Assembly: GCF_015277855.1 (NCBI RefSeq)
Contig: NZ_CP063812.1
Location: 3,658,001 to 3,722,000, forward strand
Reading direction: 5' to 3'
Length of the DNA stretch: 64,000 nucleotides
Source of the DNA: Microbacterium cremeum
GTDB taxonomy: Bacteria; Actinomycetota; Actinomycetes; Actinomycetales; Microbacteriaceae
Below, in pieces: positions 35,234 through 55,369 of the stretch. The notes below the pieces were generated by a model. It was not told where the DNA came from. It did not search any database and was given only the letters and a program-made list of their open reading frames with translations. Each line of letters opens with the position of its first letter. The stretch's first letter is position 1. Both the position numbers and the translations under genes were made by a program.

Positions 35234-36202
35234 TCAGGCCAGCGGCTCGACCTGGAAGGTGAGGACGCGGCCCTGGCGGAAGGGCTCGACGAGCTCGAAG
35301 TTCTCGAACGCGATGCCGCCGGGGATCGGCGCCTCGCTCATCCAGTACGTGTGGCGGCCGTTGACCTGCGCGATCAGACGCGAATCGGGATCGGCGGCCC
35401 GCCACGTCTGCACGGCACGATCGCCGACGTAGTGCCAGTGCTCGCGGGTGCCCTGCGCGTACTCGGCGCGGTGCGGCTCGGCCTCGTCGGGCGTCGCCGA
35501 GACCACCACCTCGGAACCCGCGCGGGCCAGCTCGTCCACGCCGAAGGCCGCGTGGTCGGCGAAGTGGATGCCGCGGTAGCCGGGCCAGAGCCTGCCCGCG
35601 GTCGCCACACGGCCTTCGGCGAGGTGGAGGGTACGCAGCCGCGCCCAATTGCCCATCGTGGCGGTGAGGACGCACGCCTCGAGCTCGACCGACGAGTCGC
35701 GGCGGTAGGCGGCCACCGTCAGCTCGTGCGGCCGGTCGGCGCGGAACCGTACGCGCACCCACACGTCGGCGCCGTTCGCGAACGGCTCGACCAGCACGTC
35801 GACGGTCAGCGTCTCGACGCCGTCGATGACGGCCACCGTGCCCCGCGCCGGGTCGCGCGGGTCGCGGGGCGCGGCGTCAGCGGCGTCGTCGGCCGCCCAC
35901 ATGCGCAGTCCCGGCACGTCGTCCAGACGGCTGCGCTCGAGCTCGCTGTACCCGCGCTCGCTGTCCCCGGCGGGGATGGGCTCGACGGCGATGAAGTTGA
36001 GCAGTCGCTCGCGGGGCTGGCCCAGGTACGGCGTGAAGATGCGCAGGAGCCCGCGCGGGCCGCTCAGCGGGTGCAGGCCGAGCTGGATGCCGCCCGGATG
36101 TCCCCAGCGGGGCTCCCGCGGCCCCCCGCCGGGCGCCGGTCGCAGCCAGCGCCCGTCGACCACGGCCTCGGTCCAGTCGCGGCCCTCGGAATCCGTCGGC
36201 AC
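35234..36202 (-). CDS. Uncharacterised protein of the D-arabinose operon (322 aa)
   Basis: 322 residues from GTG 36202, with GAGGAGA 6 nt upstream. No signal peptide, so cytoplasmic. I do not recognise a family. It is rich in beta-strand-like stretches (VWVRVRFRADRPHELTVAAY, SSVELEACVLTATMGNWARL) and ends GGIAFENFELVEPFRQGRVL, which recalls the closing strands of concanavalin-like jelly rolls. YWMSEAPIPGG and the acidic pairs could belong to a sugar site. It is the last gene after isomerase, GH116 and kinase, 28 nt downstream of the isomerase stop, so it is likely an intracellular oligosaccharide- or sugar-handling protein such as a hydrolase or mutarotase-like enzyme. Confidence 0.7.
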   Translation of the reverse strand: MPTDSEGRDWTEAVVDGRWLRPAPGGGPREPRWGHPGGIQLGLHPLSGPRGLLRIFTPYLGQPRERLLNFIAVEPIPAGDSERGYSELERSRLDDVPGLRMWAADDAADAAPRDPRDPARGTVAVIDGVETLTVDVLVEPFANGADVWVRVRFRADRPHELTVAAYRRDSSVELEACVLTATMGNWARLRTLHLAEGRVATAGRLWPGYRGIHFADHAAFGVDELARAGSEVVVSATPDEAEPHRAEYAQGTREHWHYVGDRAVQTWRAADPDSRLIAQVNGRHTYWMSEAPIPGGIAFENFELVEPFRQGRVLTFQVEPLA

Positions 36203-36230
36203 GGATCTTCTCCTCTTCGATCGGGTGCGC

Positions 36231-37868
36231 TCAGAGCCCGTCGACGCGGCCGACGAGGTTGACCTTTATGCCCATGCGGTCGAGCATCGCGGCTTTCGCG
36301 ACGAGCGCACGGTCGGCCGTGTCGGCATCGGGCGCGTACACGAGCTGCGCGTGGTTGGCCTTGTGGCGGGCCATGAACTGGTCGCGGCTGATGTCGTGCA
36401 GCACGACGTGCGCGATCGGCCATTCGGGGTTGGTGGCGTCCTTGCGGCGCTGCGTCTCGTCCTCGGGCAGCTCGACGACCGTGCCGCGGAAGATGTCGGC
36501 CTGCAGGATGCCGTCCGCGATGAACACGCGCGAGAGCACCACCTCGCCGGGCCGGGACACCCCGTTGATCGTCGAGCCGCCGGCGGGGAAGAACACCGGC
36601 CCCTGCCGCCAGCCCTCCGCTTTGTCCCACCCGCCCAGGTGCGAGCCGGGGACCGAGCCCGAGATCTCGTACACCCACACGAACCGGCCGTCGTGCTCCT
36701 CGCCCCACCGCACGTCGTGCAGCGTGTTGTCGGGCAGGAGTCCCATCGCGGTCCACACCCGGTCGGTCACGAGCGCGTCGACCGCGACGCCTTCGTCGGC
36801 CTCGTTGAAGTGCGGGAACGCGCGGTCCGCGAACAGCTCGCGGCGCCCGTCGCGCGAGTACACGGGCGGGCGCTCGGTGGAGTTGAGCACGCCCTCGGCG
36901 AGATCGGATGCCGGAACCAGATCCTTCAGCCCCTGCTGGTACTGGATGCCCACGGCGTCCAGGCCGAAGTCGTCGGCGATCCGCAGGGCGGCGATGTACA
37001 TCTTCATCTGCCAGCGCACCTGGCCCACGGTGAGCTCGGTGGCCTCGTCGGTGCCGAAGCGGAACGTCATGCCCCGCTCGACCAGCCAGTCGCGCGCGGC
37101 GTCGGCCTCGGCATCCGTCACCGTCAGCATCTCGGCGTACAGCGCCGACTGGCTCAGCCGTTCCTTGTAGATGCCGGTCCTGTTGAGCAGCTCGTCGTCG
37201 AAGATGGCGTTGTACATGCCCATGCAGCCCTCGTCGAACACGCCGATGATGGCCTTGTCGGCCAGCAGCTGGTCGCCCAGCGCCCGGCCGAGCTCGACCT
37301 CGGGGGTGTCGGGCAGCTCGGGAAGGGCACGCACGTGCGACGCGTCGTGCGTGATGCGCCCGGTCTCGGTCCACTCCTTCAGGCCCGCCCGGAACCACTC
37401 GTCGGTGAAGTCGACCGACCAGATCGTGGCGTAGTCCTTGCCCATCTTGGTCAGGCCCGCATTGAGCCCGAGCAGTCCGACCAGGCCGGGCCAGTCCCCC
37501 GCGAAGTTCGCGACGGTCACGATCGGGCCCCGGTGCGTCCGCAGCCCCGCGAGCACGTGGTGCGAGTACTGCCACACCGCCTCGGCGACGATCAGCGGCG
37601 CGTCGGCGGGGATGGTCTTGAACACCTCGAGCCCCATGCGCTGGCTCGAGATGAACCCGTGTCCGGTCTCGGGGTCGACATCGTTCGCGCGGATCACCTG
37701 CCAGCCGAGCTCGCCGAGCACCCGGGTCACCGCCGCCTCGAGCTCGACCTGGGTGGGCCAGCCGGCCGCATTCGCCGACTCGCGCAGATCGCCCGACGCG
37801 ATGAGATACGCGGTCCGGGGCGGGGTGGCCAGCTGAGCGCGCGGTGCGGGGAGCGTGTAGGTCGTCAT
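36231..37868 (-). CDS. L-fucose/D-arabinose isomerase family protein
   Basis: 545 residues from ATG 37868, overlapping the GH116 stop by 4 bp and preceded by AGGAGAC. The fucose-isomerase superfamily is indicated by GHGFISSQRMGLEVFKTIP, FDEGCMGMYNAIFDDELLN (metal-ligand Glu and Asp region), DAVGIQYQQGLKDL and a C-terminal domain with HVVLHDISRDQFMARHKANH. FucI-type enzymes convert L-fucose to L-fuculose and also D-arabinose to D-ribulose, because the two sugars share C2-C4 configuration. With GH183/172/116-type enzymes around it, D-arabinose is the likely substrate here. Cytoplasmic, Mn2+-dependent by family. Confidence 0.87.
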   Translation of the reverse strand: MTTYTLPAPRAQLATPPRTAYLIASGDLRESANAAGWPTQVELEAAVTRVLGELGWQVIRANDVDPETGHGFISSQRMGLEVFKTIPADAPLIVAEAVWQYSHHVLAGLRTHRGPIVTVANFAGDWPGLVGLLGLNAGLTKMGKDYATIWSVDFTDEWFRAGLKEWTETGRITHDASHVRALPELPDTPEVELGRALGDQLLADKAIIGVFDEGCMGMYNAIFDDELLNRTGIYKERLSQSALYAEMLTVTDAEADAARDWLVERGMTFRFGTDEATELTVGQVRWQMKMYIAALRIADDFGLDAVGIQYQQGLKDLVPASDLAEGVLNSTERPPVYSRDGRRELFADRAFPHFNEADEGVAVDALVTDRVWTAMGLLPDNTLHDVRWGEEHDGRFVWVYEISGSVPGSHLGGWDKAEGWRQGPVFFPAGGSTINGVSRPGEVVLSRVFIADGILQADIFRGTVVELPEDETQRRKDATNPEWPIAHVVLHDISRDQFMARHKANHAQLVYAPDADTADRALVAKAAMLDRMGIKVNLVGRVDGL

Positions 37869-40417
37869 GGGGTCTCCTGTGGTGAGGGGTCTGGGACGGG
37901 GGCGGCGGTGCGGGTCACGCTCTCGCCCGCCGCGACGATGAGAGGGCCGGATGCCGTGCGCCCTCGCACGACGAGACGGTCGAGCGTCAATCGGCCGCCG
38001 TCGACGTGCAGCGTGACGTCGTCGCCGTCGAGTTCGACGCGGCCCCATGCGTCGCCGGTCGTGAAGAGGGCGCGCATGGGCTGGTCACCGGCGGGGTCGA
38101 ACGAGAGGGTGCGCGTCGGCGCGTCCCACTGGGCGCCGGTGAAGGCGAGCAGCAGCGCCCACGAGGCGAGGGACCGGGCGTAGTGGTTTCCGCACTCGAT
38201 CTCGTTCCAGGGACTCCGCGTCGTCCCGTCGTAGCGGGCGCGCAGCGTGCGCTCGATCTCGAGGGCCTCGTCGGTCATGCCGGCGTAGGCGAGGGATGCC
38301 GCGACCTGATGCTCGACGCCGGTCCATACCTCGTCCGAGTAGACGAACGGGATCGCCGGCCGGCCGCCGAGGGGCCACGACGCCAGCAGCAGCCCGCCCT
38401 CGTCGTTCAGTGCGTACACCCGCTGCGTGCTCTCGTGCGCCGTGAGGTCGCCGCGGTGGTTGTGGGTCACGATCGCGCCGAGCGCCCGCCGCAGCCGCTC
38501 GCGCGGCAGCAGGTCGCCCAGGCCGTTGATCCACGCGTGGAACTGGCCGAGCAGCTGGTCCGACAGGACGCCCTCGCCGTATTGGTAGCGGTGGGCGTCG
38601 ACGTCGTCGATCACCTGTCGGTAGTACTGGCCGTTCCACAGCATGTCGTCCATGCCGCGGGAGACGCGGTCGGCGCGGTCGAGCCAGTCCGCCGCGCGAT
38701 GCGTCTCGCCGAGGTGCGCCGCCAGGCGCGCGCCCGCTCGGAGCGCTGCCGCGAACATGCCGTTGGCGAGCGGGTCGACCCCGTGGAACTCGATGTCGTA
38801 GGTGTTGTGCAGCTCGCCGTCGAGGAGCCCGTCGCCGTCGCGATCCCACTCGCGGATGGCGTACTCGAGGCTGCGCGCGGCCGCCGGCCACGACTCCCGC
38901 AGGAAGCCGTCGTCGCCCGAGAAGCGCCATTCGCGATGCAGCCGCAGGAACGTGCCGAGCTGACCGTCGACCGCGGGTCCCATGAACCACGACTCGCCGC
39001 CGAAGACGCGGTTGCCGCGGAACTTCTGGGCGCCCGCATCGTCGGTCTCGAGCAGGAACTCGGCGCGGCGCGCGCTGCGCTCCAGCGAAGGGAAGAGCCA
39101 GGCCACCGTCTGCGCATACGACCACACGTGCGTGCACGTGCCCTCGCACGACCCGGCGTGGTCGAACGACCCCTCCCACGCGGCGAACACCGGGCCGTCG
39201 CCGAGCTCGAGGTTCGGGCTCTCGACGACGAACGCCGTCGTCGAGCGGGCCGCGGCGATGTTGGCGCCGATCGCGTCGGCGACCACAGGGTCGAGGCTGC
39301 CGCCGTACAGCGCCTCGACGAACGCGAGCGTCGTCGCCTCGAGCGCGGGCAGTTCACGATGGAGATGGGATGCCGCAGCCCACGCATCGGGCCACAGCGT
39401 TGCGTAATGGTTGCGCATGACCCCTTCGTCCGGAGTGCGCGCGTCGGCCACGATGTGCCCGCGCCACGAGCGGTGCCGATTCGGGAAGCTCCATGCCAGC
39501 ACGAACTCGAAGTCGCGGCTCTCGCCGGGTTCGAGCTCATGGACGATGCCGAGCGAACCGGTGCGCAGTCGCGGGAGCTTGCCGAACAGCTCTTCCTCGG
39601 CCATGGGCGTCTCGCTCGCCGAGTCCGCGAACAGCCCGCGCGGCCGGTCTTCGAGAGTCAGGCGCGGCTCGGGCTCGAGAAGCCCGTCTGCCGAGAGATC
39701 GTTCCAGAACAGCCGCGGCCCGTCGGGCCAGAACCCGGTGACCCACTGCGGCTTGACGGTGGTCGAGGCATCCGTCGTCGTGAGGCTCAGGGTGCCGTAG
39801 CCCAGGTCGTCCTCGGGAAGACGGATGCCGAAATCCAGACCCCGGACCCCGTCCTCCTCGCGCCACCGCACGGTCTGCTGCGCCCTCATGCCGAACGGGC
39901 CCTCGCCGCGGCCGGCGGTGTGGCTCATGCTGCCGACGACGGTCGCCCGCACCCGGCCCGTGCCGGGGTTGGTCACGCGGTACCTCAGCACGGCCGCGGG
40001 AATGCCGGAGGAATCGGGATCGAGCGGCACCAGCGGGGTGAACGCGCGCAGCGACACGGTGACCGGCAGCACGTCGTCGTCGAAGTCGATGTCGACGACC
40101 GGGTACTCGCCGTGCATCGTCGCGGCGCGCAGCCGCGGCAGGCCGGCCTGGCGCTCGAACGGGTAGCCGGCATCCCAGTCGCGCCGCCCGGTCAGCTGTG
40201 CCTCGAGCACGCGCGTCACGGCAGCACCGGCCTCGGGCGCGGCGTGGATCGCGAAGAACGAGTACGGGTTGAGGCGTCCCTTGTCGGGCAGGTTCTCGAG
40301 TTCCCAGTCGCGCAGCTCGCCGCGGGCGCCGAGCGAGACGTTGCCGGTGCCGACGCCGCCCAGCGGGAACGCCGCGCGCTCAGCGGTGTGCGGGATGCCG
40401 CGTGCCCGGCGCCTCAT
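37865..40417 (-). CDS. Glycoside hydrolase family 116 protein
   Basis: 850 residues. The N-terminal beta-sandwich begins AAFPLGGVGTGNVSLGARGEL, the opening of GH116 proteins. The C-terminal (alpha/alpha)6 barrel has CEGTCTHVWSYAQTVAWLFP, HNTYDIEFHG (acid/base Asp region), YSDEVWTGVEHQVAASLAYAG and ECGNHYARSLASWALL. No signal peptide, so it works inside the cell. GH116 contains beta-glucosidases and also exo-beta-D-arabinofuranosidases found in D-arabinan degraders, and the latter fits this operon. It overlaps both the kinase upstream and the isomerase downstream by 4 bp (ATGA), which means tight translational coupling. Confidence 0.9.
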   Translation of the reverse strand: MRRRARGIPHTAERAAFPLGGVGTGNVSLGARGELRDWELENLPDKGRLNPYSFFAIHAAPEAGAAVTRVLEAQLTGRRDWDAGYPFERQAGLPRLRAATMHGEYPVVDIDFDDDVLPVTVSLRAFTPLVPLDPDSSGIPAAVLRYRVTNPGTGRVRATVVGSMSHTAGRGEGPFGMRAQQTVRWREEDGVRGLDFGIRLPEDDLGYGTLSLTTTDASTTVKPQWVTGFWPDGPRLFWNDLSADGLLEPEPRLTLEDRPRGLFADSASETPMAEEELFGKLPRLRTGSLGIVHELEPGESRDFEFVLAWSFPNRHRSWRGHIVADARTPDEGVMRNHYATLWPDAWAAASHLHRELPALEATTLAFVEALYGGSLDPVVADAIGANIAAARSTTAFVVESPNLELGDGPVFAAWEGSFDHAGSCEGTCTHVWSYAQTVAWLFPSLERSARRAEFLLETDDAGAQKFRGNRVFGGESWFMGPAVDGQLGTFLRLHREWRFSGDDGFLRESWPAAARSLEYAIREWDRDGDGLLDGELHNTYDIEFHGVDPLANGMFAAALRAGARLAAHLGETHRAADWLDRADRVSRGMDDMLWNGQYYRQVIDDVDAHRYQYGEGVLSDQLLGQFHAWINGLGDLLPRERLRRALGAIVTHNHRGDLTAHESTQRVYALNDEGGLLLASWPLGGRPAIPFVYSDEVWTGVEHQVAASLAYAGMTDEALEIERTLRARYDGTTRSPWNEIECGNHYARSLASWALLLAFTGAQWDAPTRTLSFDPAGDQPMRALFTTGDAWGRVELDGDDVTLHVDGGRLTLDRLVVRGRTASGPLIVAAGESVTRTAAPVPDPSPQETP

Positions 40418-41931
40418 GCCGACACCGCCTGCGGCGCGCGGCGCTGGTCGGCGGCGAGCTCATGCACGAGGTGCTTGGTGGTGTCGTAGAGCCGGACGTA
40501 GCGCGCGAACAGCTCGTCGTAGAAGGACGTCAGCTCGGGATCCGGGCGCACCACGGTGTCGACGGGGTTCCAGTCGCCGATGCGCGGAGGATCGGCCGAG
40601 ACCGCGCACGCCGCGAGGAACGCCGCGCCGTAGCTCGCGCCGATCGTCGTCCGCGGCACCTCCTGCACGAGCCCGGTCGCATCCGAGACGACCTGCAGCC
40701 ACAGCGAGCCCTGCGTGCCGCCGCCCACCGCGACGATGCGACGGATGTCGGCACCCGCGGCACGCATCGTCTCGACGTTGTGCCGCACGCCGAGCGCGGT
40801 CGCCTCGAGAGCGGCGCGGTAGAGATCGCCGCGCGTGTGGTCGAGGGTCAGGCCCGCGACGACGCCGCGGGCGTCCGGGTCGAGGATCGGCGTCCGCTCG
40901 CCGGCGAAGTAGGGCAGCATCGCGAGTCCGTGCGCACCGGGACCGGACGCCTCCGCCTCGGCGAGCAGCGTCGGATAGTCGGCGCCCGTGAGGTCGCGCA
41001 GCCACGCGGTCAGCGCGCCGGAGGTCGCGAGGCCTCCGGCGAGGTTGCGCGTGCCGGGGAACGCCCCTGCCGTGGTCCACATCGAGGGGGTGCGCAGCGT
41101 CCGCGTGCCGGTCGCGATCAGGAACATGGTGGTGCCGTACATCAGCATGAGGTCGCCGTCCCGGTGCGCCCCGGCGCTCACCGCTTCGGTCCAGGCGTCG
41201 ACGGTGCCCACGATGACCGGCGTGCCGGCGGGGATGCCGGTGACGGCGGCTGCGGCATCCGTCACGGCACCGGCGATGTCGCCCGCCCATGCCAGCGCCG
41301 GCGCCTCGATGCCGGGCGCGAACCGCTGCCACCAGGAGTCGTGCCAGGCTGCGGCCTCGACGTCGTACAGCGGCGAGACCTGGCTCGCGGACTGGTGGTC
41401 GAGCACGTAGGCGCCGGTGAGACGGCGGACGAGCCACGACGCCGGCATGAACAGCCGGCGCGCGCGGGCGTACGCCGCGGGCTCTTCGTCGGCGATCCAC
41501 CGGATCTTGGGCCCGGCGGCCTGGGAAGTGAGCATCGAGCCGCCGACGCGGGTGATCTCGTCGATGCCCAGCTCGGCGTTCATCCGGGCGATCTGCTCGC
41601 CCGTGCGCATGTCGACCCCGTAGAGGATCGCGGGGCGCACCGGCTCGTCGTGAGCGTCGGCGAGCAGCACGCAGGGGCCCATGCCGCTCACGCCGACCGC
41701 GGTGATCTCGGGCTCGACCCCGTCGGCGCGTGCGGTCAGCTGCAGTTCACGAGCGAGCCCGACGAACTCGTCCCACCAGACCCGCCCGTCCATCTCGACG
41801 AAACCCGGCTTCGGGCGCGACACGTCGTGCGCGACGGTCGCGCTCGCCAGGATGTGCCCCGACCCGTCGACGAGCACGCCCTTGCTGCTGGACGTGCCGA
41901 TGTCGACACCGAGCGTGCACGTGACGGCCAT
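40414..41931 (-). CDS. FGGY family carbohydrate kinase (probable D-ribulokinase)
   Basis: 505 residues. GVDIGTSSSKGVLVDGSG (residues 8-25) is the phosphate-binding loop; VSGMGPCVLLAD, LMLMYGTTMFLIATG and IRRIVAVGGGTQGSLWLQVVSDATG are conserved in FGGY kinases. Overall closest in style to xylulokinases. In this operon the isomerase would yield D-ribulose, so D-ribulose 5-phosphate is the expected product, feeding the pentose phosphate pathway. First gene of the kinase/GH116/isomerase/unknown operon, with GAGGAGGATCG before the ATG and a LacI operator within its promoter. Confidence 0.88.
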   Translation of the reverse strand: MAVTCTLGVDIGTSSSKGVLVDGSGHILASATVAHDVSRPKPGFVEMDGRVWWDEFVGLARELQLTARADGVEPEITAVGVSGMGPCVLLADAHDEPVRPAILYGVDMRTGEQIARMNAELGIDEITRVGGSMLTSQAAGPKIRWIADEEPAAYARARRLFMPASWLVRRLTGAYVLDHQSASQVSPLYDVEAAAWHDSWWQRFAPGIEAPALAWAGDIAGAVTDAAAAVTGIPAGTPVIVGTVDAWTEAVSAGAHRDGDLMLMYGTTMFLIATGTRTLRTPSMWTTAGAFPGTRNLAGGLATSGALTAWLRDLTGADYPTLLAEAEASGPGAHGLAMLPYFAGERTPILDPDARGVVAGLTLDHTRGDLYRAALEATALGVRHNVETMRAAGADIRRIVAVGGGTQGSLWLQVVSDATGLVQEVPRTTIGASYGAAFLAACAVSADPPRIGDWNPVDTVVRPDPELTSFYDELFARYVRLYDTTKHLVHELAADQRRAPQAVSA

Positions 41932-41969
41932 CGATCCTCCTCGATCATGACGGGCTGACGAACGCGTTC

Positions 41970-41998
41970 ACTCTAGACGAAATCGATTTCATGATCAA
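41970..41998 (-). promoter_or_regulatory. Promoter of the kinase/GH116/isomerase operon with LacI operator in the spacer
   Basis: Minus strand TTGATC (41993-41998), 17 bp, TAGAGT (41970-41975). The spacer contains the palindrome GAAATCGATTTC at 41979-41990, 2 nt from the -35 and 3 nt from the -10. Bound repressor would block RNA polymerase. Confidence 0.8.
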
Positions 41999-42039
41999 CC
42001 GCGCGAAACGGGGGTCGATCTGAAACCGCGGCGTTCGGC

Positions 42040-43029
42040 TCAGACCCGCTGCGAGGCACGAGCCGGCTGGACCTCGTTGCGCAGCACGACGGTGCGCGCC
42101 GGCTGGTCGTCGCCGTTGATGCGTTCGAGGAGCATCTTGGCCGCCGTCACGCCCATGTGCCGTGCGGGCAGTCGCACCACCGTCACCGCGGTCGGAGAGA
42201 GCGTCGTGAAAGGCAGTGAGCCGACCACCGCGACGCCGATCTTGGGAGGGGTGAGCCCGTGCTCGGTGAGCACCTGGATGGCGCCGACCCCCAGGAGGTT
42301 GTTGCCGGCGACGACCGCGTCAGGCGGATCGGGCAGAGCCAGCAGCTCCTCCATGACCTCGCGTCCGCCGTCGACGCGGAAGGTCGAGTAGCGCAGCAGC
42401 TCGTCGGGATCGGAGTCGGGGAAGTGGCGCGCCAGCACGGCGCGCCAGCCCTGCGCACGTTCGTAGGCGGTCTCGATGTGCTGCGGGCCGGTGATGCAGG
42501 CGATCCGGCGATAGCCCGCCTGCACCAGGTTCTCGGTAGCGGCCTGGCCCGCCGTGCGGTTCGACATCACGACACCGTCGATGTCGTAGCCCGTGCCGCG
42601 GTCGACCGCGACCACGGGGCGGCCGATCGCCATGAGATCGTCGAGATTCGTGTGGTCGGACGCTGCGGCGAGGATCACGCCGGCCATGTGCTCCGAGATC
42701 GCGATCTGGAGGTACGTCGCCTCCTTCTCGATCTGCGAGTCGGTGTTGCACAGCACGACCGAGTAGCCCGCCTGGGACGCGACATCCTCGACACCGCGGG
42801 CCATCTCGGTGAAGTAGGGGTTCTCGATGTCGGGGATCACGAGCGCGATCACCTCGGACGCCTGCTTGCGCAGCGTGCGAGCGGTGCGGTTCGGAGTGAA
42901 CCTCAGCGAACGCGCCGCCTCTCGGACGGCGAGCGCCTTCTCATCCGACACGCCCATGCCGTTGAAGACCCGCGAGACCGTCGCAGGAGACACGCCGGCG
43001 AGCTTCGCGACCTCGTAGATCGTGGCCAT
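42040..43029 (-). CDS. LacI family transcriptional repressor
   Basis: 329 residues. N-terminal helix-turn-helix ATIYEVAKLAGVSPATVSRV followed by the hinge and a periplasmic-binding-protein-like sugar domain (IALVIPDIENPYFTEMARGVED, RPVVAVDRG, RRIACITGP, DAVVAGNNLLGVGAI). It lies between the two divergent catabolic operons. LacI proteins bind symmetric operators with a central CG, and four GAAATCGATTTC-type sites occur at the promoters around it, one of them in its own divergent intergenic region. The inducer is probably D-arabinose, D-ribulose or an arabinan oligosaccharide. Confidence 0.93.
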   Translation of the reverse strand: MATIYEVAKLAGVSPATVSRVFNGMGVSDEKALAVREAARSLRFTPNRTARTLRKQASEVIALVIPDIENPYFTEMARGVEDVASQAGYSVVLCNTDSQIEKEATYLQIAISEHMAGVILAAASDHTNLDDLMAIGRPVVAVDRGTGYDIDGVVMSNRTAGQAATENLVQAGYRRIACITGPQHIETAYERAQGWRAVLARHFPDSDPDELLRYSTFRVDGGREVMEELLALPDPPDAVVAGNNLLGVGAIQVLTEHGLTPPKIGVAVVGSLPFTTLSPTAVTVVRLPARHMGVTAAKMLLERINGDDQPARTVVLRNEVQPARASQRV

Positions 43030-43059
43030 GGCACCTCGCTCCCGCGCGCCCGGCCTTCG

Positions 43060-43103
43060 TTGACATGCCGGTCAGCCAACAATACAGTGTTGAAATCGAT
43101 TCC
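43060..43103 (+). promoter_or_regulatory. Promoter of the GH172 operon with downstream LacI operator
   Basis: TTGACA (43060-43065), 17 bp, TACAGT (43083-43088), close to consensus. The operator GAAATCGATTCC (43092-43103, one mismatch from the palindrome) covers the expected transcription start. It also lies in the lacI upstream region, allowing autoregulation. Confidence 0.8.
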
Positions 43104-43151
43104 AGAAGTGCGCCGGGTTCTGGCGTGCCGACACGAGGATGTGCCTTCCCG

Positions 43152-44294
43152 ATGAGCTCACCCCAATTCCCGTCCCCGGACCTCTCGTCGATCGCCGGGC
43201 TGCGCCCGCTGCAGACGCGTTCGATCTCTCCGGAGAACTTCGACGGCGCCGCCGGCGGCGGCGGCCGCGCGACCGAGGGCACGGGTGCCTCGTGCGCTCG
43301 CGACCTCGGCCCGGGTTGGAAGATCTCGCCGAGCGTCGACATCAAGGCGGGCGAGACCTTCGATCTCGCGACCATCGACGGTCCCGGCAAGATCACGCAC
43401 ATCTGGATCACGACGCACACCGACAACTGGCGCACCCTGATCCTGCGGGCGTACTGGGACGGCGCCGCCGAACCTGCGGTCGAGGTGCCGTACGGCGACT
43501 TCTTCTGCAACGGGTGGGGCGTGTTCGCCCAGGTGAACTCGCAGACGATCGCCGCCAACCCGCACGGCGGATTCAACTCGTACTGGCCCATGCCGTTCCG
43601 TTCGGGCGCGCGCCTGACGGTCGAGAACACCTCGGTCGTCGACGTCCGCGTGTACTACCAGGTGACGTACGAGCTCGGCGGCGACTACTCGCAGGACGGC
43701 TACTTCCACGCGCAGTGGCGCCGCTCCAACCCTCTCGAGGAGCTCGTGCCGCACACGATTCTGGAGGGCATCGAGGGCCAGGGGCAGTACGTCGGCACCT
43801 ACATCGCGTGGGGTGTGAACTCCAACGGCTGGTGGGGCGAGGGCGAGATCAAGTTCTATCTCGACGACGACACCGACTACCCCACCATCTGCGGCACCGG
43901 CACCGAGGACTACTTCGGCGGCGCGTGGAACTTCGACATCCCCGGCAAGGGGTACACCGAGTTCTCGACTCCGTACCTCGGCATGCCGCAGGTGATCCGC
44001 CCCGACGGCCTCTACGTGAGCCAGCAGCGTTTCGGCATGTACCGCTGGCACCTGCTCGACCCGATCTTCTTCGCGACCGGCATCCCGAAGGTCGACATCC
44101 AGGCTCTCGGCTGGCGGAGCGGCTGGCGCTACCTGCCGCTTCGCGACGACATCTCGTCGACCGCGATGTTCTACCTCGACCGGCCGACCGCACGCCGGCC
44201 GAGAACGCCTACGGTCGACGATCTGGAGGTGCACCTAGGCACCGCCCCGGTGCCCGACATCGGCGCCACACCCCCGCGCGCACCTCAGGACTGA
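43152..44294 (+). CDS. DUF2961/GH172 family glycoside hydrolase
   Basis: 380 residues from ATG 43152, with GAGGA at 43135-43139. No signal peptide. The double jelly-roll GH172 family is indicated by SISPENFDGAAGGGG, IDGPGKITHIWITTHTDNWR, GEGEIKFYLDDDTDYPTICG, and TGTEDYFGGAW (conserved Glu). Characterised members are exo-alpha-D-arabinofuranosidases, alpha-D-fructofuranosidase and difructose-anhydride enzymes. In this locus exo-alpha-D-arabinofuranosidase activity on imported D-arabinan fragments is most likely. Family members form trimer-based assemblies. First gene of a three-gene operon with two DUF4185-like genes. Confidence 0.92.
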   Translation: MSSPQFPSPDLSSIAGLRPLQTRSISPENFDGAAGGGGRATEGTGASCARDLGPGWKISPSVDIKAGETFDLATIDGPGKITHIWITTHTDNWRTLILRAYWDGAAEPAVEVPYGDFFCNGWGVFAQVNSQTIAANPHGGFNSYWPMPFRSGARLTVENTSVVDVRVYYQVTYELGGDYSQDGYFHAQWRRSNPLEELVPHTILEGIEGQGQYVGTYIAWGVNSNGWWGEGEIKFYLDDDTDYPTICGTGTEDYFGGAWNFDIPGKGYTEFSTPYLGMPQVIRPDGLYVSQQRFGMYRWHLLDPIFFATGIPKVDIQALGWRSGWRYLPLRDDISSTAMFYLDRPTARRPRTPTVDDLEVHLGTAPVPDIGATPPRAPQD

Positions 44295-44295
44295 G

Positions 44296-47296: not shown

Positions 47297-47330
47297 CGCC
47301 CGCACCGCGCCCGCCAGTGCGGTGCGGGCG
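47297..47330. terminator. Terminator between convergent DUF4185 operons
   Basis: Perfect 12-bp arms CGCCCGCACCGC (47297-47308) and GCGGTGCGGGCG (47319-47330) with a 10-nt loop, 6 nt before the stop codon of the minus-strand gene. The rest of 47130-47335 holds no supported gene. Confidence 0.75.
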
Positions 47331-47335
47331 GCTCG

Positions 47336-48415
47336 TCAGACGAGGCCCTGGATACGGAACTGCTCCGAGTGGTACACGCTGTTGTCGGCCGTCTTCCACT
47401 GGCTCACGCTCAGGTGAAGATCCGAGAGGGTCGATCCCGGGATGATGTAGCCGCCGTACAGCTGGGCCACGTGCGACGCATCCTCCATCCCCCACTCAGT
47501 GCCGCTCAGCAGGGTCGTCTTGGTCGCGGTGTAGAGGTTGTCGGTCGGCGTGTTCAGCACCATCGCGTCGATCCGGTACGCCGCCGCGTTGAACCACACG
47601 AGGATCCATTTGCCTCCGAGCGGACGCAGGCACATCTCGCCGAACGAGCCCGGCAGCACCTCGGTGACCGGCTTGCCCCAACCCCACGAGCCGTCCCAGC
47701 CCCACGCCTGGTACGCCGAGAGCGAGGTCATGTTGTTGGAGGGCACGCGGTAGAGCACGATGCCCTTGTCGCGCTGGAAGCCGGTGCCGTAGATGTACAC
47801 GTAGCCGTCGTTCCCTTCACCCCACGTGATGCACTGAAACCTGCCGCCGGCCATGTCGGCGGGGAACTGCAGCCCGGTGTGCTGCCACGTCGCGCCGTTG
47901 TCGTCGGACTTCCACAGCTCCGTCCAGCGCACCGCGCCGAAGTGCGGGCCGTTGACGATCGCGTGCAGGTACATACGGGAGCCGATGGTGATGACGTCCG
48001 ACGGGATGACCGTCGTGAAGTACCAGTCGTGCGGGTAGTACCACAGCTGCGGTGCGGTGCCCTGCGTGTTGCCGCCCGCACCGGCGCACCCGTTGAAGGT
48101 GATGCCCGCGGGCAGGTTCGTCGTCGATGAGTAGAGGGCGACCGGCGAGCGCCAGTTCGTTCCGCCGACGGTGTCGGCCCACGTGTCACCGAACATGAAG
48201 AGCATCCGGCCGTCCGGCGTGCGCACGGGGATGCCGAGGTCGGTCGCGCCGATCCCGTACTGGACAGGGCTCTGGGTGCCGGCGAGGACCTTGATCCTCG
48301 ATACCGACAGCTGGGCGGCGGCCGCCGGGACGGCCGTCGACGCCACGAGGGCGGCGCCGAGTGCGACGCCTCCCTGCAGCAGGGTCCTGCGACTCACACG
48401 GGGCGTGGTCTCCAT
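47336..48415 (-). CDS. DUF4185 protein (GH183-type endo-D-arabinanase candidate), Tat-exported
   Basis: 359 residues from ATG 48415. The twin-arginine signal SRRTLLQGGVALGAALVAS lies near residue 8, with cleavage expected after ~AAAA (residue 35). The mature protein is a single beta-propeller with ATDLGIPVRTPDGRMLFMFGDTW (57-79), the conserved family start, and later SDDNGATWQH and YGGYIIPGSTLSDLHLSVSQW. DUF4185 proteins of this subgroup include endo-D-arabinanases (GH183) of mycobacteria and arabinogalactan degraders. Last gene of the ABC transporter operon; secreted folded through Tat, unlike its Sec-exported neighbour. Confidence 0.85.
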   Translation of the reverse strand: METTPRVSRRTLLQGGVALGAALVASTAVPAAAAQLSVSRIKVLAGTQSPVQYGIGATDLGIPVRTPDGRMLFMFGDTWADTVGGTNWRSPVALYSSTTNLPAGITFNGCAGAGGNTQGTAPQLWYYPHDWYFTTVIPSDVITIGSRMYLHAIVNGPHFGAVRWTELWKSDDNGATWQHTGLQFPADMAGGRFQCITWGEGNDGYVYIYGTGFQRDKGIVLYRVPSNNMTSLSAYQAWGWDGSWGWGKPVTEVLPGSFGEMCLRPLGGKWILVWFNAAAYRIDAMVLNTPTDNLYTATKTTLLSGTEWGMEDASHVAQLYGGYIIPGSTLSDLHLSVSQWKTADNSVYHSEQFRIQGLV

Positions 48416-48490
48416 CGACTTCTTCCTCTCGTATCGCTCGGAGCGCGACGAGCAGGATGCCCGCCGAGCCGGGGTGAGGGGGTGAGACTC

Positions 48491-48521
48491 CGCCGGCCGG
48501 CTCCGGGCGAGCCGGCCGGCG
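48491..48521. terminator. Hairpin between two DUF4185 genes
   Basis: Perfect 12-bp arms 48491-48502 and 48510-48521, 7-nt loop, within the 119-nt gap. It may attenuate the distal gene or stabilise the upstream message. Confidence 0.55.
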
Positions 48522-48534
48522 GGGTCGCGTCCCC

Positions 48535-50577: not shown

Positions 50578-50655
50578 GTTCGCGCCTTCCTGTCATCCGC
50601 CACGTCGGTGTGGCGGAGGTCTTCGCCGGTGCGCCGCATTCGCGGGGGCGAGCCG

Positions 50656-51477
50656 CTACTTCATGCCCGCCAGTCGCACACCGTTCACGATGTACCGCTG
50701 GAAGATGAGCACCAGCACGATCGTGGGCAGGGCAGCGAGGGTCGACCCGGCCATGAGCAGACCCCACTCGTTCCCCCGCTCGGAGCGGAAGCCGGCGAGG
50801 TACTGCATGATCTGCTGGAGCCCCGGATCCTGGATCGTCAGGATCGGCCACACGTACGCGTTCCAGTACGCGAGGTAGGAGCCCACCCCGACCACCACGA
50901 ACACGCCCTGCGACTGCGGGAGGAAGATCGACCAGAAGATCCGCCACCGGCTCGCGCCGTCGATGAGCGCCGCCTCTTCGAGCGCGATCGGCGTGTTCAG
51001 GTAGAACTGGCGGATGAAGAACATCTGCGCCGCGGCCGCGACGCCCGGGATGATCAGGACCGCGAGGGTGTTCAGCATCCCCAGATTCGAGACCACGACG
51101 AACGACGTCAGCAGGATGGCCATTCCGGGGATGAACATCGGGGTGATGCAGTAGATCCACCAGAACCGCTTGAGCTTGAAGTCCAGGCGTGCGAACGCGT
51201 AAGCGGCGAACGAGTTGACGGTGAGGCTCAGCAGCGTGAAGATGACCGCGCCGATGAAGGTGAGCACCATGGCCTGCACGAAGGCCGGGTCGCTGAGGAT
51301 GTCGAGGTAGTTCTGCCAGATCCACATGTCCGGGAAGAACTGGAACGGGGTCCGCACGACCTCGCTCTTGCCCTTGAATCCCGAGATCACCATCCAGGCA
51401 AGCGGCAGCATGGTGCTGACCACGATGAGGGTGGCGAGGACGACGGTGGCGACACGGCGCCGGATGGAAGTCTTCAT
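50656..51477 (-). CDS. Carbohydrate ABC transporter permease (MalG-like)
   Basis: 273 residues with six membrane helices. EEAALIDGASRWRIFWSIFLPQ is the EAA loop that docks the ATPase. A short N-terminus before the first helix is typical of MalG-type CUT1 permeases. It starts 15 nt after the stop of the partner permease. With the substrate-binding lipoprotein it imports sugars, here probably D-arabinan oligosaccharides. Confidence 0.92.
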   Translation of the reverse strand: MKTSIRRRVATVVLATLIVVSTMLPLAWMVISGFKGKSEVVRTPFQFFPDMWIWQNYLDILSDPAFVQAMVLTFIGAVIFTLLSLTVNSFAAYAFARLDFKLKRFWWIYCITPMFIPGMAILLTSFVVVSNLGMLNTLAVLIIPGVAAAAQMFFIRQFYLNTPIALEEAALIDGASRWRIFWSIFLPQSQGVFVVVGVGSYLAYWNAYVWPILTIQDPGLQQIMQYLAGFRSERGNEWGLLMAGSTLAALPTIVLVLIFQRYIVNGVRLAGMK

Positions 51478-51491
51478 GGGTGTCGGGGTCC

Positions 51492-52487
51492 CTACGCGTC
51501 GATCGCCTTGTCGGAGCGGATCAGCCGGAAGATGATCACGCTGATCGTGCCCAGCACGAAGAACAGGATGAGTGCGGCAGTGAGCGAGAAGCTGGTCGCG
51601 TAGGGCGTGGGGTCCTTGAACGTGTTGAAGATGAAGAGATTCGGGGTCATCGTGGCGTTGGTCGGCCCGCCGCCGGTCATGATGAGGGGGAGCTCGAACT
51701 GCTGCATCCCGGCGATCGTGGCCGTCACGAGCAGGTACAGCAGCACGTTCCTCATGAGCGGGATGGTGATGAACCAGGTGCGCTGGAGGTAGTTGGCGCC
51801 CTCGAGCTGGGCGGCCTCGTAGTAGCTCTGCGGGATGTCGTACATGCCCGCGAGCATGATGAGCGTCGTGATCCCGAAGGCGAGCCAGATGCCCGGCACC
51901 GAGATCGCCGGCAGCGCGAGGTCGGGATCCGACAGGAAGGCGTACGGCCCGAGGCCGACGAAGCTCAGGAGCCAGTTGATGATGCCTCCGTCGGCGCGGT
52001 ACATGAAGACGAAGATGATCGAGGCGACCACGGCCGAGACCACCGTCGGAACGTAGACCGTCGTCTTGAGCAGCCCGGCGAGCTTGATGCCGCACGTGCG
52101 GATGAAGCTCGCCATGAGGAACGCGATGATCATGATCGCCGGCACCGTGTACACGACGTACATGGCGCCGATGCCGATCGACCGCCAGAACTGCGGGTCC
52201 TCCAGCACGTACTGGTAGAACTGCAGGCCGACGAACACCGGATCCTCGTAGAAGCTGATCTCGAACGTCGACAGGTAGAAGGAGTACGCCAGCGGCCACC
52301 ACACGAAGATGCCCAGCAGGATCACCATCGGCGCGATCATCAGATACGCCGTCCTGTTGGCCATCAGGTGCTTGCTGATCCGCTCTTGCGTCTTGCGGCG
52401 GCGGCGGCCCTTGACGGGCGGCTCGGGCTGCAGCGCGACGCTCGCAGCGGTGCCCATGTGCGTCGTCGTCTGCGGCGACATCGTCAT
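51492..52487 (-). CDS. Carbohydrate ABC transporter permease (MalF-like)
   Basis: 331 residues. A ~45-residue cytoplasmic N-terminus rich in Arg/Lys precedes six membrane helices (AYLMIAPMVILLGIFVWWPL first). EAAQLEGANYLQRTWFITIP is the EAA loop. CUT1 family, partner of the downstream permease. No ATPase gene lies in the locus, so it must share a MsmK-type ATPase encoded elsewhere. Confidence 0.92.
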   Translation of the reverse strand: MTMSPQTTTHMGTAASVALQPEPPVKGRRRRKTQERISKHLMANRTAYLMIAPMVILLGIFVWWPLAYSFYLSTFEISFYEDPVFVGLQFYQYVLEDPQFWRSIGIGAMYVVYTVPAIMIIAFLMASFIRTCGIKLAGLLKTTVYVPTVVSAVVASIIFVFMYRADGGIINWLLSFVGLGPYAFLSDPDLALPAISVPGIWLAFGITTLIMLAGMYDIPQSYYEAAQLEGANYLQRTWFITIPLMRNVLLYLLVTATIAGMQQFELPLIMTGGGPTNATMTPNLFIFNTFKDPTPYATSFSLTAALILFFVLGTISVIIFRLIRSDKAIDA

Positions 52488-52521
52488 GGCGGTCTCCTTC
52501 GACTCGTGTCGGGTTCAGGCG

Positions 52522-52553
52522 GGTGGGGCGGATGCCGCGGCATCCGCCCCACC
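52522..52553. terminator. Perfect 32-bp palindrome between binding-protein and permease genes
   Basis: GGTGGGGCGGATGCCG joined directly to its complement, 16-bp arms without a loop in the DNA, 8 nt after the binding-protein stop. Such intra-operon hairpins commonly lower read-through into permease genes and protect the 3' end of the abundant binding-protein message. Confidence 0.7.
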
Positions 52554-52561
52554 GTCCGGTG

Positions 52562-53899
52562 TCAGCTTCCCGACCCGGTTCCTGCCAGCTTCTGCTTCTG
52601 GATGATGTCTTCGATCTCGACCTGCGCCTCCTGCATGGCCGCGGGGATGTCACCGCCCTTCATCGCCTTCTCGATCGCGGTCGAGAACGCGAGGCTGACG
52701 TCCCACGGGTAGGCGGGCTCGGCCTTGGCGTAGGGCACGATCTGCTCGGTGATCGTGGCGAGGAACGGGTTCGCGCTCGCCTCGTCCGTCGCCGCGAGGG
52801 CCTCGGTCACCGAGACACGAGCCGGGTACTTCGAGAAGCCGGTGGCGGTGAAGAAGTCCACCAGGCGGTCGGTGTCGTCGGCGAGCAGCCACTGCACGAA
52901 CTCGGCCGCGCCTTCCTGCGCCTTGGACTTGGAGTCGACCGTCAGCGTCCAGCCGCCCAGCGTCGAGGTGGGCAGCGTGGCGTCGCCGTTGTGCGACGGG
53001 AAGGGCGCCACGCGGGTGTTCTCCCACACCTGTGCCCAGTCGGGGTTGGCCGAGAGCTGGCCGAGGGCCCACGAGCCGCACGCGCTCATCGCGACCTTGC
53101 CCTCGCCGAAGAACGAGCAGTCGGCGTACGGGTACGTCGCCTCCTGCGGCATGAGCTTCTCCTGGTAGAGCGTCTGGTAGAACGCGGCGAGGTCCTCGTA
53201 CGCGGGGTCGTCGGCGGATGCCTCGGACCAGTCTCCGCGGAGCGGGAGGTCGCCGGCGACGTTGTACTGCAGTCCCCAGCTCGACCAGCCCAGGTCGGGG
53301 GCGGTCTGAGCGATGTTCATTCCGAGCACGCCGTCGCCCGTGAGGGTGCGGGCGTCTTCGATGAGCTCGTCCCAGCTGGTCGCGGGCGCGTCGATGCCGG
53401 CCGCCTCGAACAGGTCGGCGCGATAGAACAGCACCGTCGACGGCTCCACCAGGAGCGGGTACGCGTAGATCCCGTCGTCGACCGTGACGAAGGGCTCGAT
53501 GTTCTCGGCGATGTCCTCGAACGCCGACGCATCCATCAATTGGGTGAGGTCGGCGAGCTGCCCGTTCGCCTGCATCGGCTTGATGTTGCCGTAGTTCGTG
53601 GTCTTGACGTCGGGTGCCTTGCCGGCGGCCTGGGCGGCCTTCAGCTTCTGGTCCCACGTGTCGGCCGGCACGACGAGGTGCTCCACCTCGACATCGTCGC
53701 TCTGCGCGTTGAACTCCTTGACCTGCTCCTTGAACCACGCCTGCTGGTAGTCCTCGAACTGCTGCTGCCAGAAGATGACCTTGGTCTTGCCGTCCTCGGT
53801 GGTCGGTGCGCCACCTCCGCCGGCGCAGCCCGCCAGGAGCGTGCCCGCGGCCGCCGCCGCGACGGCGGCGAGCATGAGCCTGCTGTTTCTCTTGTGCAT
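52562..53899 (-). CDS. ABC transporter sugar-binding lipoprotein (CUT1)
   Basis: 445 residues from ATG 53899, with AGGAGGGACGA upstream. Signal peptide with lipobox LAGC, lipidated Cys25, then a Gly-rich linker. The solute-binding fold shows KVIFWQQQFEDYQQAWFKEQVKEF, YAYPLLVEPSTVLFYRADLFEAAG and GKVAMSACGSWALGQL. It captures oligosaccharides at the outer membrane face for the two permeases downstream. First gene of a five-gene operon (binding protein, two permeases, two DUF4185 enzymes) driven by a promoter with a LacI operator in its spacer. Confidence 0.93.
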   Translation of the reverse strand: MHKRNSRLMLAAVAAAAAGTLLAGCAGGGGAPTTEDGKTKVIFWQQQFEDYQQAWFKEQVKEFNAQSDDVEVEHLVVPADTWDQKLKAAQAAGKAPDVKTTNYGNIKPMQANGQLADLTQLMDASAFEDIAENIEPFVTVDDGIYAYPLLVEPSTVLFYRADLFEAAGIDAPATSWDELIEDARTLTGDGVLGMNIAQTAPDLGWSSWGLQYNVAGDLPLRGDWSEASADDPAYEDLAAFYQTLYQEKLMPQEATYPYADCSFFGEGKVAMSACGSWALGQLSANPDWAQVWENTRVAPFPSHNGDATLPTSTLGGWTLTVDSKSKAQEGAAEFVQWLLADDTDRLVDFFTATGFSKYPARVSVTEALAATDEASANPFLATITEQIVPYAKAEPAYPWDVSLAFSTAIEKAMKGGDIPAAMQEAQVEIEDIIQKQKLAGTGSGS

Positions 53900-54205
53900 T
53901 CGTCCCTCCTCAGGAACACGACTCTTCGGTGAGTCGGAGCTGTGGCCGGTCAAGGAAGCCCGGTCTGACGTATCGAGCGATCGGCGGCCTCGGTGGATCG
54001 CCGGTGATCTCGTCTCGGGTCAGAGTAGGCGAAATCGATTTCAAGTGCAATGGGCGGCGAGTCGCCTCGTAGTCCTGTCTGGGTCGTGGAGAGCAACATC
54101 GGCGAGCGAAACGGCCGGAAATGCCCGCCGAACGGCGTCGCTCGATGCTCCGAGCCCGCGCGGGCCGGTCTGTATCGATTTCACAACGGGGCCCGGCATC
54201 CGTCG
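53900..54205. other. 306-nt gene-free interval upstream of the ABC operon
   Basis: Holds the ABC operon promoter and operator at 54022-54050 and a ~115-nt transcribed leader down to the ATG at 53899. In 54051-54205 I see only a degenerate half-operator (ATCGATTTC at 54174-54182, with three mismatches in the other half) beside the end of the 387-residue DUF4185 gene. No small gene is supported. Confidence 0.6.
54022..54050 (-). promoter_or_regulatory. Promoter of the ABC/DUF4185 operon with LacI operator in the spacer
   Basis: Minus strand TTGCAC (54045-54050), 17 bp, TACTCT (54022-54027). The perfect GAAATCGATTTC palindrome (54031-54042) lies 2 nt from the -35 and 3 nt from the -10, the same geometry as at the kinase promoter. 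Confidence 0.82.
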
Positions 54206-55369
54206 TCACGACGCCTTCTCGAGATCGGCCGAGAACCAGAACACGTTGTAGGGGCCCCACAGTGACAGCGAGAAGTGGATGCGGCGTCCGCCCTCGGTGA
54301 CGTATCGCGGATTCAGGTACGGCGAGTACAGCCCTGGGTAGTCCGAGCGGGAAGCCAGCAGGACGGGGTCGTTCCACGGTCCCCACGGCGTGATCCCCTC
54401 GCGGAGGTAGGCGTTCCCGTCGTCCGAGTAGGTCATGAGCCAGCGGTCGAGGTACTCCGAGAACATGACCGACAGCTCGCCGATCGTCCCGTCGACGACG
54501 AGCTCGGCATCCGTCATGTCGGACGACCAGACCGGGGCGCCGTCTCCACCCGTGCCGGCGAAGTACGAGTAGGCGGCGAGGTCCTCCACCGCCGCCACGG
54601 TCGCCGGCACGCGCATGAGCGCAACGCCGCCGAAGCGACCGGACGGGATGGTCCAGAAGTACACGTACTCGTCGCCGCCGTCCGAGACGATCACCGGCGC
54701 CACCTGGATGAAGTTCGAATCCCCCGGCCAGCGCGGGGCATCCAGCACGGTCCAGGTCTCGCCCTGGTCGATGGACTTCGCAAGCCCTGCATAGTTCGCG
54801 TCCCACGCCCCGGGTTCACCCCAGTACGCCACCGACATGTACGAGATGTAGAGCGTGTCGCCGATCGCGAAGCCGTGGGTGGGGATCTTCGTGACCTCGC
54901 CCTCGCCGTCGTTCGGGTCGTGCTCGCCCTCGACGAGCGCCTCGGCCCACCCGATGTCGTCGGCCGGCGCCCAGCCATCGAACGTGATGCCGTCGGACGG
55001 ATCGACGTCGGTCGTCCAGGCCGAGACGTTGGAGCGCCAGATGCCGCCCTGACCGCCGATCGCCTCGGGGTCCCGTTCGCCGAACGTGTCGCCGAAGAAG
55101 AAGTACGTGCGGTCTCCGAGGTTCGTCATCGACCCGAGGTCGGTGCCGGCGACCGCGGCCTTCTCGGTGTCGTTCATGCCGTCGGGTCCGGTCAGCTGCG
55201 CGATCTGGGTGACGTTCGACACGTCCGCCAGCACGAACGGCGTGTCAGTCCCGGCGTCGACGTCGACCACGGGGGTCGCCGGCGATCCGGAGCATGCCGC
55301 GAGCAGCACGGTGAGAGAAGCGGATGCCGCGACCGCCGCGGCACGGGCGCGGGAGCGCGATACGGACAT
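54206..55369 (-). CDS. DUF4185 lipoprotein (GH183-type endo-D-arabinanase candidate)
   Basis: 387 residues, AGGAGGATC before ATG 55369. Signal peptide with lipobox LAAC, Cys26, so membrane-anchored outside. The propeller has VAGTDLGSMTNLGDRTYFFFGD then TFGERD, SIDQGETWTVLD, WNDPVLLASRSDYPGLYSPY and GPYNVFWFSADL. It is closest to the 359- and 680-residue DUF4185 proteins (subfamily A). Monocistronic, with its own LacI operator at 55420-55431. Probably an endo-D-arabinanase that stays near the sugar-binding lipoprotein. Confidence 0.87.
   Translation of the reverse strand: MSVSRSRARAAAVAASASLTVLLAACSGSPATPVVDVDAGTDTPFVLADVSNVTQIAQLTGPDGMNDTEKAAVAGTDLGSMTNLGDRTYFFFGDTFGERDPEAIGGQGGIWRSNVSAWTTDVDPSDGITFDGWAPADDIGWAEALVEGEHDPNDGEGEVTKIPTHGFAIGDTLYISYMSVAYWGEPGAWDANYAGLAKSIDQGETWTVLDAPRWPGDSNFIQVAPVIVSDGGDEYVYFWTIPSGRFGGVALMRVPATVAAVEDLAAYSYFAGTGGDGAPVWSSDMTDAELVVDGTIGELSVMFSEYLDRWLMTYSDDGNAYLREGITPWGPWNDPVLLASRSDYPGLYSPYLNPRYVTEGGRRIHFSLSLWGPYNVFWFSADLEKAS

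What the first reader, a model, noticed from the sequence alone, without database searches (positions are those of the whole stretch)
35234..55369. Complete D-arabinan (arabinogalactan/lipoarabinomannan) utilisation locus
Seen: five DUF4185-type proteins, one DUF2961/GH172, one GH116, a CUT1 sugar importer, a FucI-type isomerase, an FGGY kinase and a LacI repressor in 20 kb. Known: GH183 (from DUF4185) contains endo-D-arabinanases, GH172 exo-alpha-D-arabinofuranosidases and GH116 exo-beta-D-arabinofuranosidases acting on mycobacterial arabinan, including enzymes from Microbacterium; FucI enzymes isomerise D-arabinose to D-ribulose. Inferred: the locus turns the wall arabinan of mycolate-containing bacteria into D-ribulose 5-phosphate. 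Enzymes, import, intracellular trimming, sugar entry and regulation are all present, giving a testable whole pathway.
Basis: partly seen in the sequence, partly recalled or inferred. Interest (0 to 1): 0.88.

Follow-up and report, generated by a model that had tools for sequence, protein, structure and literature searches.

The report
Microbacterium locus for eating D-arabinan
This is a gene cluster with which a Microbacterium most likely digests the arabinose polymer in the cell walls of mycobacteria and their relatives; a closely related cluster was published in 2023, but this copy adds an unstudied branch of the cutting enzymes, one of which seems to work inside the cell, and a clear DNA switch in front of its operons.

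Summary
In detail: all the genes named lie at 35234-55369. The reading is supported but not new. The locus is the counterpart of the D-arabinan locus of Microbacterium arabinogalactanolyticum (Shimokawa 2023, PMC10509167): GH172 91%, FucI 84%, GH183 EndoMA2-type 81%, GH116 74% and GH183 EndoMA1-type 54% identical, with the catalytic and specificity residues kept. Of 366 genomes of the genus, 71 hold the GH172 orthologue and all 71 also hold the FucI isomerase.

Three things go beyond what I read of that paper. (1) Two of the five DUF4185 proteins (44299-45498 and 45498-47129) fall under Pfam's cut-off. They form a separate GH183 branch with the catalytic Asp pair kept and the third catalytic residue changed from Glu to Gln. 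One is a lipoprotein; the other has no signal peptide and is probably cytoplasmic. The paper's MIAR_33220, called functionally elusive, appears to belong here. (2) A palindromic operator, GAAATCGATTTC, stands at four places before the transcription units and nowhere else in the genome at up to one mismatch. (3) FucI-kinase-LacI cassettes with that operator also occur without arabinan enzymes, so the arabinan genes look like an add-on to a D-arabinose cassette. Activities and induction were not tested here.

The parts
35234..36202 (-). UNK: conserved protein without Pfam family or visible signal peptide, last gene of the FGGY-GH116-FucI run; weakly modelled beta-supersandwich (galactose-mutarotase-like) fold
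36231..37868 (-). FucI-type isomerase, proposed D-arabinose isomerase
   Evidence: PF02952; hhalign to E. coli FucI probability 96.5 with E/D/H metal-ligand positions matched by eye
37865..40417 (-). GH116 exo-beta-D-arabinofuranosidase, counterpart of ExoMA2, no visible signal peptide
   Evidence: (74% identity; E431, H446, R483, D557 kept)
40414..41931 (-). FGGY kinase, proposed D-ribulokinase
41979..41990 (.). operator GAAATCGATTTC before the FGGY-GH116-FucI-UNK run
42040..43029 (-). LacI-family repressor
43092..43103 (.). operator GAAATCGATTCC (one base off) shared by lacI and GH172
43152..44294 (+). GH172 exo-alpha-D-arabinofuranosidase, counterpart of ExoMA1, no visible signal peptide
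   Evidence: (91% identity; N253 kept)
44299..45498 (+). D4A: divergent GH183-branch protein with lipoprotein signal (LVLSAC); start 44296 or 44299; counterpart of the uncharacterised gene next to EndoMA1 in M. arabinogalactanolyticum (probably MIAR_33220)
45498..47129 (+). D4B: second divergent GH183-branch protein, with a C-terminal extension (probably discoidin/CBM32-like), no visible signal peptide
47336..48415 (-). E47: GH183 endo-D-arabinanase, counterpart of EndoMA2, Tat-like signal by eye
   Evidence: 81% identity
48535..50577 (-). E48: GH183 endo-D-arabinanase of EndoMA1 type with the CBM-like domain plus a DUF7927 domain, signal peptide by eye
   Evidence: 54% identity to EndoMA1
50656..51477 (-). 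sugar importer permease B (CUT1-type)
51492..52487 (-). sugar importer permease A (CUT1-type)
52562..53899 (-). solute-binding lipoprotein of the importer
54031..54042 (.). operator GAAATCGATTTC before the SBP-permeases-E48-E47 run
54206..55369 (-). E54: GH183 lipoprotein, probably the counterpart of MIAR_33320
   Evidence: 65% identity
55420..55431 (.). operator GAAATCGATTTC before E54

Best explanation
A D-arabinan utilisation locus of Microbacterium that feeds on arabinogalactan and lipoarabinomannan of other, mycolate-walled bacteria. Secreted or surface-anchored GH183 enzymes (E47, E48, E54, probably D4A) cut the polymer; the SBP and two permeases import oligosaccharides with an ATPase encoded elsewhere; in the cytoplasm GH172 removes alpha- and GH116 removes beta-D-arabinofuranose, possibly helped by D4B; the FucI isomerase and FGGY kinase turn D-arabinose into D-ribulose 5-phosphate. 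The LacI repressor binds GAAATCGATTTC at four sites that cover all transcription units and is released by D-arabinose or a product of it. Shown here: genes, residues, one confident fold, operator, conservation. Shown by others in the orthologous locus: four enzyme activities and induction. Inferred: isomerase, kinase and importer substrates, activity of D4A and D4B, operator binding and repressor ligand. The confidence is for the locus as a whole; the D4 roles are rated apart.
For: Residue-level match to characterised enzymes: GH172 91% with N253; GH116 74% with E431/H446/R483/D557; E47, E48 and E54 keep D33, D51, R198, E243 and Y293 of EndoMA1. Same core order as the M. arabinogalactanolyticum contig (L120). 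GH172 orthologue goes with FucI in 71 of 71 genomes. Operator: the only matches with up to 1 mismatch in the 3.98-Mb genome are the four sites here; 0 of 100 shuffles of the window reach the count; the exact site occurs 173 times in 69 loci, against 0 for each of 200 draws of shuffled palindromes. No PF04602 arabinan-synthesis protein in the own genome, while the control C. glutamicum rings (other synthesis families not searched), so the substrate is probably foreign. Published activities and induction: PMC10509167.
Against: FucI occurs in 90 genomes without the GH172 orthologue, 55 of them with the exact operator, so isomerase, kinase and repressor do not by themselves point to arabinan. Importer proteins are only 40-47% identical to those of M. 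arabinogalactanolyticum, so the imported product may differ. No ATPase gene in the locus. 10 of 69 related loci lack the kinase gene, not counting a 6-kb contig. Trp138 of EndoMA1 is kept in E48 and E54 but falls in a gap in E47. No activity or expression was measured on this strain.
Confidence: 0.92

Rival explanations
1. The locus serves another furanoside, such as an alpha-fructan or difructose anhydride, since GH172 contains an alpha-D-fructofuranosidase (alphaFFase1).
For: alphaFFase1 (7v1v) matches the GH172 at E 1e-33; D4B's fold search also lists levan enzymes.
Against: The ExoMA1 match is far stronger (8ic8, E 2e-245), with Asn, not Gly, at position 253 (role from PMC10509167); GH116 has the ExoMA2 residues; no fructan family turned up among the locus proteins scanned.
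Confidence: 0.03
2. The locus remodels the cell's own wall arabinan, as GH183 enzymes of mycobacteria may do.
For: GH183 homologues occur in mycobacteria with their own arabinan (PMC10115798, passages).
Against: No PF04602 protein in the genome, control positive; catabolic isomerase and kinase, importer and repressor are present.
Confidence: 0.02
3. About D4A and D4B only (not exclusive of the main reading): they are not active glycosidases but sugar-binding or vestigial GH183 relatives, because the third catalytic residue is Gln.
For: E243Q and E243A nearly abolished EndoMA1 activity (PMC10509167); Gln in 40 of 41 D4 rows; MIAR_33220 gave no soluble protein.
Against: Both catalytic Asp are invariant in 41 of 41 rows and the subsite Arg is kept in 40; in DgGH4185b the Glu mutant broadly kept activity (PMC10115798); size and pI of the native secreted endo-D-arabinanase led its finders to MIAR_33220.
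Confidence: 0.25

Closest known systems
D-arabinan degradation PUL of Microbacterium arabinogalactanolyticum JCM 9171 (MIAR_33170-33320), Shimokawa et al. 2023, PMC10509167
   Same: Same core order (FucI-GH116-FGGY-LacI facing GH172, D4A), same enzyme families, orthologues at 54-91% identity, operator before FGGY and between lacI and GH172, and two more exact sites about 12-14 kb further on the contig.
   Different: Window adds D4B (that genome has only the D4A-type match); its EndoMA1-type gene lies after the importer, not after D4A, and carries a DUF7927 domain; importer proteins are only 40-47% identical; UNK lies at the opposite end.
PUL42 of Dysgonomonas gadei, Al-Jourani et al. 2023, PMC10115798
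   Same: GH183, GH172 and an abundant predicted fucose isomerase for D-arabinan (passages).
   Different: Bacteroidota; not compared by sequence here except through PDB hits.
MIAR_33220 (uncharacterised DUF4185 protein)
   Same: By gene order, length 366 aa and pI 4.34 it is probably the D4A counterpart (69% identity).
   Different: I saw no locus tags. The paper says homologues are absent from the putative PULs of other Microbacterium species, whereas D4A occurs in 18 of 69 genus loci.

Membership tests
GH183 (classical) for E47, E48, E54 | PF13810 over the curated cut-off | tested here: met
   237, 417, 269 bits; cut-off 39.5
GH183 (classical) for E47, E48, E54 | Asp nucleophile, Asp acid/base, Glu and Arg of EndoMA1 (D33, D51, E243, R198) | tested here: met
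   present in the three; in the whole alignment D33, E243, R198 in 224 of 224 rows, D51 in 220, 4 rows read X
GH183 for D4A, D4B | PF13810 over the curated cut-off | tested here: not met
   32.8 and 28.0 bits; 36 of 41 D4 rows match at E<0.001, bits for the other rows not shown
GH183 for D4A, D4B | five-bladed propeller closest to EndoMA1 | tested here: met
GH183 for D4A, D4B | catalytic Asp pair, 18 residues apart as in EndoMA1 | tested here: met
   41 of 41 rows; 23 of 23 in the alignment with D4A. Correspondence to D33/D51 rests on spacing and on the PF13810 match, as the hhalign alignment starts after them
GH183 for D4A, D4B | third acidic residue E243 | tested here: not met
   Gln in 40 of 41, Leu in 1, by profile alignment
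GH172 exo-alpha-D-arabinofuranosidase (ExoMA1 type) | DUF2961 and Asn253 | tested here: met
GH116 exo-beta-D-arabinofuranosidase (ExoMA2 type) | E431, D557, R483, H446 | tested here: met
L-fucose/D-arabinose isomerase family | family profile and Mn ligands E337, D361, H528 (numbers recalled) | tested here: met
   PF02952 over cut-off; hhalign 96.5%, the three positions matched by eye in the printed alignment; N-terminal domains not recognised by Pfam
CUT1 sugar importer | SBP, two permeases, ATPase | tested here: inconclusive
   SBP and permeases found; no ATPase among the 14 genes; a shared ATPase elsewhere was not looked for
D-arabinan PUL | induction by D-arabinose and arabinan | not testable with these tools
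   reported for the orthologous locus

The most novel reading that the evidence does not exclude
D4A and D4B belong to a functionally distinct GH183 branch with altered distal subsites (Glu to Gln at position 243, cleft Trp not kept, cleft Tyr variable), spread over Actinomycetota and some Bacillota and Chloroflexota, often beside GH172 or joined to the EndoMA1-type carbohydrate-binding domain. In Microbacterium one copy lost its export signal and became an intracellular enzyme that trims a linkage or decorated end of imported oligo-D-arabinofuranosides that GH172 and GH116 leave behind.
Probability: 0.35. Interest if true: 0.6.

Novelty: new member of a known kind. Interest (0 to 1): 0.42.

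Why it matters
Enzymes that take apart mycobacterial D-arabinan are wanted as analytical tools for lipoarabinomannan and arabinogalactan. The work here suggests that the published pathway recurs in about a fifth of Microbacterium species (71 of 366 genomes hold the GH172 orthologue), gives a sharp predicted operator from which the regulon can be read in other genomes, and points to one untested enzyme branch with a natural change at a residue that is essential in EndoMA1.

Tried and rejected

Rows left out: of 55 D4 loci, 50 had a D4B-type segment of 330 or more residues, 2 of these (L120, L143) held stops in the segment and were dropped, and 40 of the remaining 48 went into A2 with the window. 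FucI and GH183 rows with stops were dropped. G299 was not fetched, so 69 of the 70 other genomes with the GH172 orthologue were compared. Several loci are cut by contig ends or by my 20-kb limit (among them L038, L100-L102, L104-L106) and L103 has split genes, so absences there are not proof.

Full report
WHAT IS THERE. The window is bases 3658001-3722000 of a complete 3.98-Mb genome. Genomes of the same genus include G021, whose contig has the same length as one of Microbacterium barkeri (191155 bases), and G012, whose contig has the same length as one of M. arabinogalactanolyticum JCM 9171 (1251348 bases), so the genus is Microbacterium by inference. Between 35234 and 55369 lie 14 genes in five predicted units: FGGY-GH116-FucI-UNK (minus), lacI (minus), GH172-D4A-D4B (plus, facing lacI), SBP-permease-permease-E48-E47 (minus) and E54 (minus). 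Families are from Pfam.

THE KNOWN PART. PMC10509167 (I read parts 1-4 of 8, abstract to the start of Methods, and passages of the rest) describes a D-arabinan locus in M. arabinogalactanolyticum with GH116 (ExoMA2), GH172 (ExoMA1), four DUF4185 genes (two characterised as EndoMA1 and EndoMA2), an ABC importer, and a putative isomerase and kinase, with genes induced by D-arabinose and mycobacterial wall extract. The same contig was found by my scan (L120). Identities of the window proteins to that strain: GH172 90.8%, FucI 83.6%, E47 81.3%, FGGY 75.2%, GH116 73.9%, D4A 69.3%, E54 65.4%, E48 53.5%, permease A 47.4%, SBP 39.8%. The functional residues checked in GH172 and GH116 are kept. E47, E48 and E54 keep D33, D51, R198, E243 and Y293 of EndoMA1; the stacking Trp138 is kept in E48 and E54 and falls in a gap in E47. 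FucI is far from E. coli FucI but aligns over 378 columns with the E, D and H metal positions (recalled numbers) matched.

HOW WIDESPREAD. GH172 orthologues (81% identity or more) occur in 71 of 366 genomes of the genus, counting the window's own (87 of 366 have any match). All 71 have FucI; FucI occurs in 161 of 366. In 69 fetched loci, at the identity thresholds set in the script: LacI 68, FucI 66, GH116 59, FGGY 58, E54 47, UNK 33, E47 28, EndoMA1-type 20, D4A 18, E48-type 11, D4B 9 (8 full length). Eight of the 69 carry another GH116 type (31-36% identity), six of these with another importer (23-29%).

THE OPERATOR. Three exact copies of GAAATCGATTTC and one one-off copy stand 48-132 bases from the gene starts, covering all five units, the one-off copy being shared by lacI and GH172. 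In the genome no other place matches the 14-base pattern with up to one mismatch; five more match with two; the reversed control matches nowhere. In the 69 loci a site (up to 1 mismatch) lies within 300 bases upstream of FGGY in 56 of 58, of LacI in 68 of 68, of GH172 in 69 of 69, of SBP in 56 of 62 and of E54 in 42 of 67; for SBP and E54 the script took the best hit in reach, which in some loci is a paralogue. The exact core occurs 173 times in these loci, and none of 200 draws of shuffled palindromes (not all different) occurs. No site is present in six loci with the second GH172 type. Genus-wide, the exact site is in 70 of 71 genomes with the GH172 orthologue (the exception, G299, is 76% complete), in 55 of 90 with FucI only and in 2 of 205 with neither. 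At the shared lacI-GH172 promoter the site read toward lacI is one base off in 67 of 68 loci, always at the same position (A, C or G in place of T when read toward GH172). The paper reports milder induction of GH172 (3.5- and 6.0-fold, against more than 10-fold for the DUF4185 genes and GH116), which would fit a weaker operator; against this simple link, two of those DUF4185 genes lie downstream of GH172 in the same direction in that strain. The word LacI does not occur in the main text of the paper.

FUCI WITHOUT ARABINAN GENES. Four FucI-only loci were read, out of the 55 that also have the exact site: each has FucI-FGGY-LacI with the operator just before FGGY and no hit to GH172, GH116, GH183 or D4 in 20 kb. 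So isomerase, kinase and repressor make a separate cassette, and the arabinan genes look like an addition to it.

LINK TO AN OPEN POINT. In M. arabinogalactanolyticum the D4A counterpart is the second gene after GH172 and lies directly before EndoMA1; it is 366 residues with pI 4.34. This fits MIAR_33220, chosen by its finders by size (300-400 residues) and pI (4.3-4.6), insoluble when expressed, and called elusive because its homologue is not in the putative PULs of other Microbacterium species. The 18 of 69 loci with D4A change that. The equation D4A = MIAR_33220 is inferred; I saw no locus tags.

LIMITS. No activity, expression or localisation was measured. Loci compared are from related genomes, not independent samples. 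Only one arabinan-synthesis family (PF04602) was looked for. Paper searches (listings only, apart from the two papers named) cover open-licence papers; I make no claim that D4 or the operator is unpublished beyond those searches and the text read. Supplementary files were not seen.

Noticed in passing
window 55595-62815 (-): A 2406-residue surface protein with DUF5979 and DUF11 domains and a C-terminal LATTG sortase-like signal (by eye) lies next to E54; no sign that it belongs to the locus.
   Followed up: no
G000:C1:1017270-1017581 (L005): A sixth, weak DUF4185 match (32.7 bits, below the cut-off) elsewhere in the genome.
   Followed up: partly
L042, L044-L046, L048, L052, L053, L069, L078, L083: Ten loci without the FGGY kinase gene although an exact operator not tied to another listed gene is still there; the kinase must be elsewhere or replaced.
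   Followed up: no
L054, L082, L098-L101: Variant arabinan loci with another GH116 type (31-34%) and another importer (23-29%), but the same kinase and repressor genes, the isomerase where in reach, and the same operator.
   Followed up: partly
L138, L141, L142 (Flexivirga), L153, L161 (Actinocatenispora): Other arrangements of GH172 with D4 genes; the Flexivirga loci also have a variant GH116 and FucI, while the Actinocatenispora loci gave no hit to these.
   Followed up: partly
window 35234-36202 and relatives in 33 of 69 loci: UNK: conserved, probably cytoplasmic protein without any known family, at either end of the locus; possibly mutarotase-like.
   Followed up: partly
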